Positions 56,452-61,377 are shown, numbered from the stretch's first letter. The stretch is DNA of 64,000 bases from Entomospira culicis (GCF_028748145.1 NZ_CP118181.1:1364211-1428210), one strand, 5' to 3'. Numbers and translations: made by a program. The notes: generated by a model from the letters alone, not told the origin.

Positions 56452-56481
56452 TTGCATTTTTTCCCATTATCATGTTATAAT
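56452..56481 (+). promoter_or_regulatory. Promoter of the 5'-nucleotidase genes
   Basis: TTGCAT (56452-56457), 18 bp, perfect TATAAT (56476-56481), 32 bp before the start codon of the first gene. Confidence 0.72.
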
Positions 56482-56513: not shown

Positions 56514-58064
56514 ATGATGAAAAAATGGTTTATCCCTTTATTAATCGTCGCGCTCTTTGGTGCTTGCCAGAAAGAGAAGCCATCTTTAGTGCTAGAGGTT
56601 ATCAGCACCACCGACGTACACGGCTATGCATTAAGCCCCAACGAAGAGACCATCGGCTATGCCACCATCGCCAACTACACCGAAATGGTGCGCGAGGCAC
56701 ATCCGCATGTACTACTCCTAGATGCTGGCGATTATCTCCAAGGTAGCGCGCTAACCAATCTTACCGAAGGTGCGGATGTCATTCAAGTGATGAACGCCAT
56801 GCACTACGACGCAGTAACCGTGGGGAATCATGAATTTGACTTTGGCTGGGAGAATCTGCTGCAACGTCAAAGCGAGGCAACCTTTCCGCTCATTACTGCG
56901 AATGTCCAACAAGTGGGAGTAGGTAGCCCCTTTGCTAGCCATCAAACCATCGAGAAAGGTGGCGTAAAAATTGCCATTGTCGGTCTAACCACACCAGAGA
57001 CAAGCTGGAAAACCTCCGCGCAAAATGTGGAAGGATGGCAATTCCTCGATCCCATCACGACGCTTACCCCGCTCATCAATCAATTGAAAAAAGAGCATGC
57101 GATCATCATCGTCCTTGCGCACCTAGGCGAAGAGGGCGAATATCGCGCTTCCGACCTCGCTCATGCGATTCCTGCTATTGATCTAATTATTGATGGGCAC
57201 GATCATACGCCGACGATCACCCTTGGTAACGCCGAAAACAACTTCACGCCCAGCTATGGTAAACGTATCGGAAATACACTTATCGTAAATAGTGGCGGAA
57301 ACGCCCAATACCTCGCGCATACAACCATTACCCTCGAGAAGGGAAAAGTTGTTGATATTAGCGCCAAAATTCTTAATGCTTCTGACGAGGAACTTAACGC
57401 AGGGTATACCATGCGTCCTAACGCCCAACAGGTTGTCGCCCTGCTTGAAGAGATTCATCAACGCTCCCAAGTCATTTTACAGCAAGTCGTTAGCTACTCC
57501 CCCATCTACCTAGATGGCACGCGCGAGGTGGTTCGCATGCAAGAGAGCGCATTGGGTCGCCTAATTGCCGATAGCTATCGCTATGAAGCCCAAACCGATA
57601 TCGCCCTCATGAACGGCGGAGGTATTCGCACCTCTATCGATGCAGGTGATATCACCTTACAAGATCTGCTTAGCGTGCTTCCCTTTAATAATACCGTGGT
57701 GCGCATTGACCTTACTGGAGCGGAGATAAGAACAGCGCTGGAGCATGGGCTTAGTCAATACCCCGATGCCAATGGTGCCTTCATTCACGGATCGGGCTTT
57801 ACCTATAGCTATGATCTCTCTGCACCAGTTGGATCTCGCGTGGTGGATATCTGGATAGCCGAGACACTTATCGATCCGCAAGCAACCTACTCTTTAGCGC
57901 TCTTGAACTTTCTAGCGACGGGGGGTGATGGCTTTACCATGCTCGATAAGCCAATTGTTGGTGAATTCTCTAGCGATGCGGACATTCTTATTCGTTACAT
58001 CAAAGCCTACCCCGAAGAGGCATTTACCTTGATTGAAGCGCCACGTAGTTGGCAAACATCATAA
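56514..58064 (+). CDS. 5'-nucleotidase/metallophosphatase lipoprotein, catalytically complete
   Basis: A 516-residue lipoprotein (ALFGAC lipobox) of the UshA/5'-nucleotidase family, which strips phosphate from extracellular nucleotides. The metallophosphatase domain keeps every ligand: D34-x-H36 (TTDVHG), D73 (DAGDY), N105-H106-x-x-D109 (GNHEFD), H203 (AHLG), H229 and H231 (DGHDH). The C-terminal domain, about residues 310-500, holds the nucleoside site with NGGGIR, LPFNNTV, HGSGFTYSYD and FLATGGDGF. The ATG follows GAGGAGTCTCCCAA. It is the first of three tandem paralogues and the only one expected to be an enzyme. Released nucleosides could feed the rbs/nucleoside hydrolase operon. Confidence 0.94.
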   Translation: MMKKWFIPLLIVALFGACQKEKPSLVLEVISTTDVHGYALSPNEETIGYATIANYTEMVREAHPHVLLLDAGDYLQGSALTNLTEGADVIQVMNAMHYDAVTVGNHEFDFGWENLLQRQSEATFPLITANVQQVGVGSPFASHQTIEKGGVKIAIVGLTTPETSWKTSAQNVEGWQFLDPITTLTPLINQLKKEHAIIIVLAHLGEEGEYRASDLAHAIPAIDLIIDGHDHTPTITLGNAENNFTPSYGKRIGNTLIVNSGGNAQYLAHTTITLEKGKVVDISAKILNASDEELNAGYTMRPNAQQVVALLEEIHQRSQVILQQVVSYSPIYLDGTREVVRMQESALGRLIADSYRYEAQTDIALMNGGGIRTSIDAGDITLQDLLSVLPFNNTVVRIDLTGAEIRTALEHGLSQYPDANGAFIHGSGFTYSYDLSAPVGSRVVDIWIAETLIDPQATYSLALLNFLATGGDGFTMLDKPIVGEFSSDADILIRYIKAYPEEAFTLIEAPRSWQTS

Positions 58065-58092
58065 ATTATGTAGACAATATTTTGGAGTTACC

Positions 58093-59613
58093 ATGAGTAA
58101 AGTAAAACCCATCATTCTTCTTACTGGTCTTCTGGCTCTGTTGAGCGGATGTAGCAAGCAAAAAGCCTCGTTTGAGCTGGAAATTATTACCACGTCTAAC
58201 CTTAGTGGACAGGCGCTCACGCCATCTGAGGAGAATATCAATTATACCACCATTGCCAATTACAAAGCATTCTTGCAAGAAGAGCAGGAGAATGTCTTGC
58301 TCTTTGATTTGGGCGATTACATCCACGGCACGGCGATTGCTAATTTTGATAAAGGTCTAAATGTGGTTAAGGTGATGAACGCGGTGGGATATGATGCAGC
58401 GACGATAGGTAATCTTGAATTTAACTTTGGTGGCGCCCAGCTAGCCATCCTAAAATCTGAAGCTGACTTTCCAATTTTAGTAGGTAATGTGCGTAAACGC
58501 GGGGAGATGGAGAGTTTTCCCCAATACAAATCCTTTACCATAAATGGTGCGCGCATTGCTGTGGTGGGTGTAACAACGCCAGACATTCAATGGAAGGTTG
58601 CGCAGAAGAATATCGAGGGGTGGGAGGTGAGTGATCCTATCAAAGTATTAAAAGAGATCATTCCAAAACTACGTAAGGAGCATGACTTTATCATTCTCCT
58701 CTCCCACCTAGGCGACGAAGGGGAGATCACCCCGGCCATTCTCGCTGAACGCGTTAATGGGATTGATCTAATCATCGACCAACACGATCCCACAATCCCT
58801 GCAGAAGGAACAGTTGTCGGAAAAACCACAATCCTTAGTGGCTTTATCGATGCCCATGGCTTGCTCCACACCTCCATTGCGGTGGAAAAGGGCAATATCA
58901 CAGCAATCGTAAACCGCCCGCTAGACCTCTCTGCCGAAGAGCTTAACGCTGGGTACACCTTGCGCGAATCGGCACAAAGCGTCCAAGTGTTATTACGTAA
59001 TATCAATCGTGGCTTTGACGACTTTCTAAATACCGTCTTGAGTTTTAGCTCTATCTACCTTGACGGAACCAGAGAGAGCGTACGCACATCAGAAACAAAC
59101 CTAGGTCGCCTTATTGCCGATGGGTTGAGAGCCGATGCCGGCACACAATTGGCCTTTATGAATGGCGGAGGAATTCGTAGTTCGATGAATGCAGGTGATA
59201 TCACCTTTGGGAACATCCTAAGCGTGCTACCCTTTGACGGCGATATCGTAAGTATCGAAGTTACCGGGCAAGATCTCAAAGATGCCCTAGAACATGGTCT
59301 CCGTGAATATCCAGAACCCAATGCCGGCTTTCCTCATGTATCAGGTTTTACGTATAGCTATAACCTCTCTGCTCCTGCTGGTAGCCGTATTGTAGAGATA
59401 TGGATAGACGAAAAACCCATCAACCTTGAGGCTACCTACACCATCGCGCTTCTGGACTTCTTAGCAACAGGTGGCGATGGATACACCATGTTTAAAAAGC
59501 CCATCATTCAAACCTTTAGTAAAGAGGCTGATGCCTTCACGTCCTATATCCGCAATGGATCTGAAGAGATCTTTACACGTGTTACCCAGCCACGTAGCTG
59601 GTCTGCCCAATAG
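58093..59613 (+). CDS. 5'-nucleotidase-family lipoprotein lacking catalytic residues (paralogue 2)
   Basis: A 506-residue lipoprotein (LLSGC lipobox), close to the preceding protein over its full length. The start at 58093 follows TTTTGGAGTTACC; the frame opening at 58033 overlaps the upstream gene and is not used. In the metallophosphatase domain several key residues are replaced: D-x-H becomes N36-x-S38 (TTSNLSG), GNHEFD becomes GNLEFN (catalytic H and D both lost), and GHDH becomes QHDP. D75, N107 and the SHLG histidine remain. The C-terminal nucleoside site is intact (NGGGIRSS, LPFDGD, HVSGFTYSYN, FLATGGDGY). It is probably a non-enzymatic binding protein, co-transcribed with the first gene, 28 bp apart. 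Confidence 0.9.
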   Translation: MSKVKPIILLTGLLALLSGCSKQKASFELEIITTSNLSGQALTPSEENINYTTIANYKAFLQEEQENVLLFDLGDYIHGTAIANFDKGLNVVKVMNAVGYDAATIGNLEFNFGGAQLAILKSEADFPILVGNVRKRGEMESFPQYKSFTINGARIAVVGVTTPDIQWKVAQKNIEGWEVSDPIKVLKEIIPKLRKEHDFIILLSHLGDEGEITPAILAERVNGIDLIIDQHDPTIPAEGTVVGKTTILSGFIDAHGLLHTSIAVEKGNITAIVNRPLDLSAEELNAGYTLRESAQSVQVLLRNINRGFDDFLNTVLSFSSIYLDGTRESVRTSETNLGRLIADGLRADAGTQLAFMNGGGIRSSMNAGDITFGNILSVLPFDGDIVSIEVTGQDLKDALEHGLREYPEPNAGFPHVSGFTYSYNLSAPAGSRIVEIWIDEKPINLEATYTIALLDFLATGGDGYTMFKKPIIQTFSKEADAFTSYIRNGSEEIFTRVTQPRSWSAQ

Positions 59614-59620
59614 TTCATAC

Positions 59621-59653
59621 GCTCTATCCTCCGCGCTAGGCGGATAGAGCTTT
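59621..59653 (+). terminator. Terminator after nucleotidase paralogue 2
   Basis: A 9-bp stem GCTCTATCC / GGATAGAGC with a GC-rich inner part and a short TTT tail, 8 bp after the stop codon. Confidence 0.65.
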
Positions 59654-59679
59654 ACAAAGCGCGCTAAATATGCTATCAT
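59651..59679 (+). promoter_or_regulatory. Promoter in front of a 13-codon ORF
   Basis: TTTACA (59651-59656), 17 bp, TATCAT (59674-59679). It overlaps the tail of the preceding hairpin and could also serve the third nucleotidase paralogue, 175 bp downstream. Confidence 0.65.
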
Positions 59680-59714
59680 GGGCGCATTATCAACATCAAA
59701 TAGGAGTTCGTCAT

Positions 59715-59756
59715 ATGCTAGAAAATCCTCCTCATATTCTTCCTAACATCGCTTGA
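59715..59756 (+). other. 13-codon ORF with ribosome-binding site: leader peptide or gene remnant
   Basis: ATG at 59715 follows TAGGAG at 8-10 nt and encodes MLENPPHILPNIA before a TGA. A promoter lies in the right place upstream. It looks like the intact front end of a gene whose body has been lost, or a short leader peptide. The 97 bp between it and the next gene hold no other recognisable gene. Confidence 0.4.
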
Positions 59757-59853
59757 ATATATTCCATTTCTATATTAATTTCTATACAAGAGACCTCTTG
59801 CTGTTACACAATATTTGGTTGATATACTCTAAAATAAAGCAGGTTAGCTTCCC

Positions 59854-61377
59854 ATGAGATACATATTTTTTTCTTTGCTATTACTTACACTTTTGATTAG
59901 TTGCCCAAAAACCAAGGAGCCAAAAATCCATGAGCTTCACATTCTAAGCACGGGCGACACTTATGGTTATATGCTCTTAGATCAGCAACAAAATATTCAC
60001 TATGATCAACTCCTTGCCTATAAACTTGCACTAGAAGAGCAAGGGCATCAGGTTATCCTCCTAGACTCAGGCAATACCATTCAGGGCTCTCTGTTCACCA
60101 ACATGAAAAAAGGCGAGACCACCATCGAGGTGATGAATATGGTAGGTTATGATGCCATCAATGTCGGCTACCACGATATGATCTTTGGCGATCAGCAATG
60201 GCGTAATCTTCATCAAATTGCCTCCTTTCCGATCCTTAGCAGTAACTTAATCTGGAATGAAGATCCGATCACCTTACCCTATACGATGTTTACTGTCGAT
60301 CAGTTAAAGATCGCTGTGGTGGGATTAACCTCCCCCCGCGTTGTAGAGATCAACCAACATCAGCTTAGTGAATCTCGCATCATTGATCCCTTTGCGCACA
60401 TTACCTCTCAACTAGAAGAGCTTAGTACCCAAGCCGATCATATCATCCTCATGACCAGTTTGGGCGAAAATTCCAGCGAAATGGCAAGTCGCATTATTAC
60501 CCTCTTTCCTGATATCCTACTCATCATCGATAGCGATCACATTCTCCTTGATTCCGATGGGGAGATTGTACAAAATTCCTTGATTATCAATAATGTGCGC
60601 TATGCAAAGTCGATGAACCACACCACACTAACCATCCAAGATAATCAAATTCTCACCGTGCATAACAAGCGCTTAACTACCGAAGATTTACACCTCAACG
60701 AAGCGCAACAACAGCATCCGGCTGTGCAAGAAGTGCGCGCACTCATGCAACGCTTACGTGCCGAAGCAGAAGCGCTCACCCAAGAGACGATCATCCTCCT
60801 TCCTCAACGACTCAATGGCGAAAAAGAGAGCGTGCGCACACGTCAAACGCTCCTAGGTAGCATAATCACTGACAGTTTTCGTCTCATGAGCAACGCCGAT
60901 ATCGCCTTTATTAATGGTGGAGCCATCCGTGCATCCCTCCCCAAAGGCGAGATCAGCTATGCCAATATTTTCAATGTGATGCCTTTTGACAACTCCATTA
61001 TTATTATCACCTTGACTGGCCAGCAAATTAAAGAGGCACTAGAGCACAGTGTTAGCCAATTACCCGAGGATTTTAGCGGGCTTCTCCATGTTTCTGGTCT
61101 CACATATAATTATATAGTTACTCCTGAAGGTAACAGCGTCTTAGACATTTGGTTCCATCAGCGCCCGCTCAATCTTACCAAAAACTACAAAGTTGCTATC
61201 ACGACCTTCTTGCATCAAGGCGGCGACGGTTTTAGCGTCTTTGAACAACCCATTGAAGAGGAGATCGACAAAGATATCAATCTCTTCACCTCTTATATCT
61301 CTAGCTATCCCTACGACACGATCTACAACACTGCGCTTCTGCCTCGCGCGCTACGCTTACTAGAGACAAAATCCTAA
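59854..61377 (+). CDS. 5'-nucleotidase-family lipoprotein with nearly all metal ligands lost (paralogue 3)
   Basis: A 507-residue lipoprotein (LLISC lipobox) of the same family. The metallophosphatase domain is further degraded: D-x-H is D35-x-Y37, the GD motif is GN (N74), GNHEFD is GYHDMI, AHLG is TSLG, and GHDH is SDHI. Only the first aspartate and the GNHE-position histidine survive, so hydrolysis is not expected. The C-terminal domain still has NGGAIRAS, MPFDNS, HVSGLTYNY and HQGGDGFSVF. The start codon has only a weak GCAGG site upstream. It probably binds a nucleoside, nucleotide or other ligand at the surface. The stop lies 20 bp before hrpA. Confidence 0.88.
   Translation: MRYIFFSLLLLTLLISCPKTKEPKIHELHILSTGDTYGYMLLDQQQNIHYDQLLAYKLALEEQGHQVILLDSGNTIQGSLFTNMKKGETTIEVMNMVGYDAINVGYHDMIFGDQQWRNLHQIASFPILSSNLIWNEDPITLPYTMFTVDQLKIAVVGLTSPRVVEINQHQLSESRIIDPFAHITSQLEELSTQADHIILMTSLGENSSEMASRIITLFPDILLIIDSDHILLDSDGEIVQNSLIINNVRYAKSMNHTTLTIQDNQILTVHNKRLTTEDLHLNEAQQQHPAVQEVRALMQRLRAEAEALTQETIILLPQRLNGEKESVRTRQTLLGSIITDSFRLMSNADIAFINGGAIRASLPKGEISYANIFNVMPFDNSIIIITLTGQQIKEALEHSVSQLPEDFSGLLHVSGLTYNYIVTPEGNSVLDIWFHQRPLNLTKNYKVAITTFLHQGGDGFSVFEQPIEEEIDKDINLFTSYISSYPYDTIYNTALLPRALRLLETKS

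What the first reader, a model, noticed from the sequence alone, without database searches (positions are those of the whole stretch)
56514..61377. Three tandem 5'-nucleotidase lipoproteins that lose their active site step by step
Copy 1 keeps all seven metal ligands and the catalytic H-D pair. Copy 2 loses D-x-H, the catalytic His and Asp and one GHDH histidine. Copy 3 loses nearly all ligands. All three keep the lipobox, the full length (506-516 residues) and the C-terminal nucleoside-binding motifs (NGG-IR, PF, HxSGxTYxY, GGDGF/Y). Keeping a full open frame while losing catalysis points to selection for another job, such as binding of nucleosides or host ligands on the cell surface, or regulation of copy 1. 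The family chemistry is known; this graded series as a working set is inference.
Basis: partly seen in the sequence, partly recalled or inferred. Interest (0 to 1): 0.72.

Follow-up and report, generated by a model that had tools for sequence, protein, structure and literature searches.

The report
Nucleotidase beside two dead nucleoside-binding copies
A mosquito-gut spirochaete carries three neighbouring surface-protein genes of one nucleotide-cutting enzyme family: one looks like a working enzyme, and the other two have each lost different parts of the cutting machinery while keeping the pocket that grips the nucleoside, which suggests they now bind nucleosides instead of cutting them.

Summary
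Three intact tandem genes (56514-58064, 58093-59613, 59854-61377) encode full-length UshA-type lipoproteins. Copy 1 keeps all seven metal ligands and the catalytic His. Copies 2 and 3 do not, yet keep most of the C-terminal nucleotide pocket. The losses are exceptional: 121 of 126 aligned rows keep all eight N-site residues (two more only swap His for Asp); besides copies 2 and 3 only one other gene fails. Three corrections. (1) It is not a stepwise series: the lost sets share only position 43 (Ser versus Tyr). Copy 2 lost the metal-1-only ligands plus His117; copy 3 lost the bridging and metal-2 ligands. (2) Copy 2's Asn for Asp120 is no sign of loss: 48 of 89 mostly spirochaete homologues have it. 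(3) Copy 3 may have its own promoter. The genome (by size, GC and contig count Entomospira culicis) has no detectable PurF or PurD and has two PnrA/Bmp-type nucleoside receptors, so purine salvage is the likely setting. Best reading: copy 1 makes nucleosides; copies 2 and 3 are non-catalytic nucleoside/nucleotide-binding lipoproteins. Binding, partner and location are inferred. No paper on dead bacterial members of this family was found in the held literature.

The parts
56514..58064 (+). Copy 1: lipoprotein 5'-nucleotidase of the UshA type, 516 aa, complete dimetal site and catalytic His117
   Evidence: (PF00149 + PF02872)
58093..59613 (+). Copy 2: pseudo-nucleotidase lipoprotein, 506 aa; metal-1-only ligands (41, 43, 254) and catalytic His117 lost, metal-2 ligands and most of the nucleotide pocket kept; 28 bp behind copy 1, so probably one operon with it
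   Evidence: (PF02872 only)
59854..61377 (+). Copy 3: pseudo-nucleotidase lipoprotein, 507 aa; bridging and metal-2 ligands lost (84, 116, 217, 252) plus His43; most of the nucleotide pocket kept; the fastest-evolving copy
   Evidence: (PF02872 only)
56452..56481 (+). Candidate promoter of copies 1 and 2: TTGCAT, 18 bp, TG-T-TATAAT (extended -10)
   Evidence: read by eye in the sequence; consensus only
59621..59650 (+). Hairpin after copy 2 (11 pairs, whole 61-nt stretch -19.7 kcal/mol, z -2.2) followed by a short U stretch; possible terminator
   Evidence: the terminator scan did not list it
59651..59679 (+). Candidate promoter of copy 3: TTTACA, 17 bp, TATCAT with TG extension (10 of 12)
   Evidence: best-scoring of 12; the number found equals chance
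59715..59756 (+). 13-codon ORF (MLENPPHILPNIA) behind an AGGAG site, in the gap before copy 3; role unknown
   Evidence: sequence

Best explanation
An active surface or periplasmic 5'-nucleotidase (copy 1) turns extracellular nucleotides into nucleosides. Two paralogues born by tandem duplication in this lineage have lost phosphohydrolysis but kept the C-terminal pocket that grips base, ribose and phosphate. Copies 2 and 3 most likely serve as nucleoside/nucleotide-binding lipoproteins in purine salvage, catching ligand at the cell surface or in the periplasm so that copy 1 and the PnrA/Bmp-type nucleoside importer can use it. Shown from sequence: tandem paralogy, intact frames, loss of the dimetal site, retention of the pocket, predicted retention of the two-domain fold, absence of purF and purD hits, presence of two Bmp receptors. 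Inferred: no catalysis, real ligand binding, hand-over to the importer, outer-surface location.
For: Metal ligands and His117 are kept in 121 of 126 aligned rows but lost in copies 2 and 3. Pocket residues are mostly kept, and conserved C-domain columns are kept better than N-domain ones. The three copies form one clade (98/96 with active-site columns masked), and the only other genome of the family held has one intact copy. Silent sites are near saturation (4-fold 0.64 and 0.70 v 0.73 and 0.71 expected) while non-degenerate sites differ by only 0.32 and 0.45, so selection has on average been purifying. AlphaFold2 gives confident UshA-like models (pLDDT 88.7 and 85.3), and copy 2's best PDB matches are a 5'-nucleotidase with bound cytidine and uridine. 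The H117A mutant of the related CpdB is essentially inactive on 3'-AMP yet is still inhibited by adenosine almost normally (PMC7922932), so binding survives loss of catalysis. In other spirochaetes the pocket domain exists as a separate exported protein with all eight pocket residues. PurD and PurF not found, two Bmp receptors found.
Against: No binding or expression data. Copy 2 has lost Asn431, and copy 3 has R375K; both changed Gly458. Copy 3 evolves about three times as fast as copy 1 (branch 2.02 v 0.62), which also fits partial relaxation. No sister species could be examined. The N domain has been kept whole, which simple C-pocket binding would not require.
Confidence: 0.45

Rival explanations
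1. Copies 2 and 3 are regulatory partners of copy 1 (like the dead 'prozyme' paralogues of trypanosome enzymes), forming mixed dimers that tune its activity or stability.
For: Copy 2 lies 28 bp behind copy 1, so the two are probably made together. The whole two-domain fold is kept, not only the pocket.
Against: UshA works as a monomer (own knowledge). Nothing in the sequence marks an interface. Copy 3 may have its own promoter.
Confidence: 0.17
2. Copies 2 and 3 have become binders of something else (insect or microbial ligands, adhesins, decoys), and the pocket is kept only because it is part of the fold.
For: Fast evolution of copy 3 and its unusual amino-acid make-up.
Against: The specific ligand-contacting residues are kept, not only structural glycines.
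Confidence: 0.17
3. They are relaxed duplicates on the way to loss, without a present function.
For: Rates above that of copy 1; conserved catalytic-domain columns lost freely.
Against: Both frames are open after divergence to 50% and 33% identity, where drift would bring about 10 or more stops. Non-degenerate sites are much less diverged than silent sites. Signal peptides and C-domain columns are kept.
Confidence: 0.11
4. They are still enzymes: copy 2 keeps all four metal-2 ligands (84, 116, 217, 252) and could bind one metal and cut another substrate slowly.
For: In copy 2 the lost ligands are exactly the three that serve only metal 1 (site assignment from own knowledge of UshA).
Against: The catalytic His117 is Leu in copy 2. 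In CpdB, H117A removes nucleotidase activity (PMC7922932). Copy 3 lacks both metal sites.
Confidence: 0.1

Closest known systems
UshA / ecto-5'-nucleotidase (CD73, 2z1a, 3ivd) family, PF00149 + PF02872
   Same: Copy 1: both domains, all ligands. Copies 2 and 3: same fold, length and C-domain pocket; best PDB and NCBIfam relatives.
   Different: Copies 2 and 3 lack the dimetal centre, and copy 2 the catalytic His; their N domains no longer match PF00149 at E 0.001.
Multi-copy surface 5'-nucleotidases such as SntA-SntD of Streptococcus suis (PMC11407386)
   Same: Several diverged surface paralogues in one genome.
   Different: From the abstract only: they are described as 5'-nucleotidases and anchored to the cell wall. 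Whether any is dead was not checked here.
PnrA / Bmp nucleoside-binding lipoproteins (BmpD of Borrelia, PMC7093131)
   Same: Proposed job: lipoprotein that binds nucleosides for a purine-dependent spirochaete.
   Different: Unrelated fold; a true ABC-importer receptor. The genome has two of these in addition.
Split 5'-nucleotidases in other spirochaetes (L149-L159)
   Same: The nucleotide-pocket domain exists apart from the catalytic domain and is exported.
   Different: There the catalytic half is intact and separately encoded, so the two halves may still work together.
Dead paralogues of trypanosome purine enzymes and 'prozymes' (e.g. APRT isoforms, PMC8836349, title and abstract only)
   Same: One active and one or more inactive paralogues in the same cell.
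   Different: Other families and a eukaryote; a regulatory role is not shown here.

Membership tests
UshA-type 5'-nucleotidase | C-terminal 5_nucleotid_C domain (PF02872) | tested here: met
   All three copies, 136-156 bits
UshA-type 5'-nucleotidase | N-terminal metallophosphoesterase domain (PF00149) | tested here: inconclusive
   Copy 1 matches (42.5 bits); copies 2 and 3 do not at E 0.001, though models keep the fold
UshA-type 5'-nucleotidase | Seven metal ligands and catalytic His117 | tested here: not met
   Met by copy 1 only; copies 2 and 3 fail
UshA-type 5'-nucleotidase | Substrate pocket R375, R379, R410, F429, N431, G458, F498, D504 | tested here: met
   Copy 1 8/8; copies 2 and 3 keep 6/8 each
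UshA-type 5'-nucleotidase | Phosphohydrolase activity | not testable with these tools
   No assay possible
Pseudoenzyme | Homologue of an enzyme that lacks essential catalytic residues but is kept as an intact gene | tested here: met
   Copies 2 and 3
Pseudoenzyme | Shown lack of activity and a shown other role | not testable with these tools
   Needs purified protein and mutants
Bacterial lipoprotein | Signal peptide with lipobox cysteine | tested here: met
   FGAC, LSGC and LISC read by eye; copy 1's box is non-canonical; no predictor was run
PnrA/Bmp nucleoside receptor | PF02608 domain | tested here: not met
   No such match in the three copies; two separate Bmp genes in the genome

The most novel reading that the evidence does not exclude
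A 5'-nucleotidase has given rise, by tandem duplication and two separate losses of the dimetal site, to a new class of nucleoside- or nucleotide-binding lipoproteins that work beside the active enzyme in a purine-dependent insect spirochaete.
Probability: 0.42. Interest if true: 0.6.

Novelty: new variant of a known kind. Interest (0 to 1): 0.42.

Why it matters
Dead enzymes that keep their substrate pocket show how a binding protein can arise from an enzyme. Here the living enzyme and two differently disabled copies lie side by side in a small genome, in a family whose structure and mechanism are known in detail, so the idea can be tested with ordinary binding and growth assays. It would also say how insect-gut spirochaetes feed on host nucleotides, a poorly known matter, and it warns against annotating copies 2 and 3 as active 5'-nucleotidases.

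Tried and rejected
(a) Sister species: E. entomophila and E. nematocerorum are described (PMC11636382, PMC7554043), but family and order searches held only one other genome; the single genome-contig scan with copy 3 brought only distant relatives, nearly all Elusimicrobia and Cloacimonadota, and viral contigs gave nothing. So the trio's age and per-species dN/dS stay open. (b) Pairwise dN/dS: NG86 dS was mostly undefined (saturation) and YN00 failed, replaced by degenerate-site counts. (d) 'Loses the catalytic Asp' in copy 2, rejected because Asn is common there. (e) 'Step by step', rejected as non-nested. (f) RNA family in or between the genes: none. (g) Horizontal gain of copies 2 and 3: rejected, since they group with copy 1 and have similar third-position GC (0.51, 0.47, 0.50). 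(h) Literature: no paper joins nucleotidase, pseudoenzyme and lipoprotein, and the single hit for PF02872 with 'catalytically inactive' concerns trypanosome pyrimidine salvage by its abstract and was not opened. The library holds open-licence papers only.

Full report
Where it is. The window is bases 1,364,211-1,428,210 of contig 1 of a 1,769,585-bp, four-contig genome. Window GC is 46%. Size, GC and contig count agree with Entomospira culicis (chromosome about 1.64 Mb plus replicons of 98.6, 28.4 and 3.0 kb, 45.8% GC; PMC11636382), a spirochaete from the mosquito midgut. This identification is an inference from those numbers. A published survey lists Entomospira as having both ushA-like and cpdB-like genes (PMC10454023); the word 'inactive' does not occur in its main text.

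The genes. Three genes on the + strand, 56514-58064, 58093-59613 and 59854-61377, code for 516, 506 and 507 residues, each with a signal peptide and a lipobox-like cysteine. Copies 1 and 2 are 28 bp apart, with GGAG before copy 2, so they are probably co-transcribed. Copy 3 follows a 240-bp gap that holds a stable hairpin, a -35/extended -10 match and a 13-codon ORF behind AGGAG. The promoter scan found no more sites than expected by chance, so its own promoter is only a candidate. The neighbours, an MgtC-family gene on one side and an HrpA-like helicase (named by eye, not searched) on the other, give no functional link. The same genome has two more distant family members elsewhere.

Active sites. 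Aligned with E. coli UshA, copy 1 has all seven metal ligands and His117. Copy 2 has N41, S43 and P254 in place of the ligands that serve only metal 1, and L117 in place of the catalytic His, but keeps D84, N116, H217 and H252. Copy 3 has Y43, N84, Y116, S217 and a deletion at 252, but keeps D41, H117 and H254. (Which ligand serves which metal is from my own knowledge of the UshA structure.) The lost sets overlap only at position 43, with different replacements. In 89 homologues, mostly spirochaete, Asn (48) is as common as Asp (41) there, so that change carries no weight.

How unusual this is. In an alignment of 126 rows (the three copies, UshA, one plasmid-collection record and loci from Spirochaetia, Elusimicrobiota and Cloacimonadota), 121 have all eight N-site residues (seven ligands and His117). 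Two have Asp in place of two His ligands, a substitution that can still bind metal. Only copy 2, copy 3 and one gene in another spirochaete (L066: H117N, H252F and three lost arginines) lack the site. The sample was found by similarity to copy 1, 2 or 3, so it is not a random draw. Among the matches listed for 297 genomes of the class I saw no other tandem group, but the list is cut off at its weak end.

Pocket and domains. UshA grips its substrate with R375, R379, R410, F429, N431, G458, F498 and D504 (F429/F498 stacking is stated in PMC7922932; the others are from own knowledge). Copies 2 and 3 each keep six of eight. Over 89 columns conserved in 27 other spirochaete homologues (the same-family G001 protein included), copy 2 keeps 61% in the N domain and 84% in the C domain (Fisher P=0.019), copy 3 keeps 41% and 74% (P=0.003), and copy 1 keeps 76% and 87% (P=0.28). 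So the extra loss is concentrated in the catalytic domain.

Origin. The three copies form one clade within spirochaete nucleotidases (99/95; 98/96 with active-site columns masked). The only other held genome of the family, a 130-contig assembly about 95% complete, has one intact copy. The duplications therefore fall in this lineage. The order within the trio is less sure: copies 1 and 2 pair with support 94/82, while pairing copies 2 and 3 is not rejected (p-AU 0.17) and nor is pairing copies 1 and 3 (0.08).

Selection. Four-fold sites differ by 0.64 (copies 1-2) and 0.70 (copies 1-3), close to the saturation values of 0.73 and 0.71. Non-degenerate sites differ by 0.32 and 0.45. As tandem paralogues have had equal time, branch lengths (copy 1 0.46, copy 2 0.68; copy 3 2.02 against 0.62 for the path to copy 1) say that copy 2 changes about 1.5 times and copy 3 about 3 times as fast as copy 1. 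Average constraint is clear; recent relaxation cannot be excluded. Unconstrained drift to similar identity leaves about 10 stops per gene, and no simulated gene stayed open. Indels were not simulated and would make it less likely still.

Structure. AlphaFold2 with a 20-row alignment gives mean pLDDT 88.7 for copy 2 and 85.3 for copy 3, both two-domain UshA-like. The best PDB matches are 3ive/3ivd, a 5'-nucleotidase with cytidine or uridine, for copy 2, and 2z1a for copy 3. The alignments contained active relatives, so fold retention is expected; pockets were not inspected atom by atom.

Setting. The genome has no PurF match. The only PurD-domain hit is a sub-threshold match in a 495-aa ATP-grasp-like protein that is not PurD (naming is mine). 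It has two PnrA/Bmp-type receptors. So it very probably needs outside purines, and copy 1 can make nucleosides for the importer. The word 'purine' does not occur in the paper that describes the genus (PMC7554043).

Mechanism proposed. Copies 2 and 3 bind nucleosides or nucleotides without cutting them. Two facts make this plausible. In the sister enzyme CpdB, replacing the catalytic His abolishes nucleotidase activity but hardly changes adenosine inhibition (PMC7922932). And in several spirochaete families the C domain is made as a separate exported protein with all pocket residues, so the domain is a natural module. Against a pure binding role stands the retention of the entire N domain; a partner or regulator role for copy 1 remains a serious rival. 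Confidence in the main reading is 0.45; in loss of 5'-nucleotidase activity of copies 2 and 3 about 0.9.

Novelty. The fold and the enzyme are known, and pseudoenzymes are a known kind. I found no paper on dead UshA-family paralogues in bacteria, within an open-licence library. I class it as a new variant of a known kind.

Noticed in passing
L154:3642-5457, L155:3657-5451, L159:3342-5112 (same strand); L157:3537-5376, L158:194-1978 (divergent); L149-L153, L156 (single halves): In several spirochaete families the UshA-type nucleotidase is split into a separately exported catalytic half (PF00149 only, metal site intact, sometimes with a Tat-like SRRxF signal) and a pocket half (PF02872 only, 8/8 pocket residues). 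May be a natural two-subunit nucleotidase.
   Followed up: partly
L053 and L085:7123-8646 (-) (G111:C2): A close relative of the trio shows the mirror image: metal site complete but the pocket residues F429, F498 and D504 replaced (M, I, P).
   Followed up: partly
L066 and L083:228-2051 (-) (G030:C12): An independent nucleotidase with H117N, H252F and all three phosphate-binding arginines replaced; a possible second, unrelated dead copy.
   Followed up: partly
L136, L147: Large (825-1079 aa) spirochaete nucleotidases with Asp for His at positions 43 and 252; possibly another metal preference.
   Followed up: no
window 59715-59756: 13-codon ORF with a good ribosome site between copies 2 and 3, behind a hairpin and a promoter-like site; leader peptide or gene remnant.
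   Followed up: no
L088 (NZ_CP154629.1, Acetoanaerobium noterae, listed as a 2.63-Mb plasmid): A Clostridia record holds an intact homologue 41% identical to copy 2 that nests within the spirochaete proteins; possible gene transfer. The record's plasmid label looks doubtful for its size.
   Followed up: partly
L004:1192-2970 (-), L005:1189-2910 (-) (same genome): Two further, distant nucleotidase-family genes of 592 and 573 aa; L004 keeps its metal site, L005 appears to lack a signal peptide.
   Followed up: no
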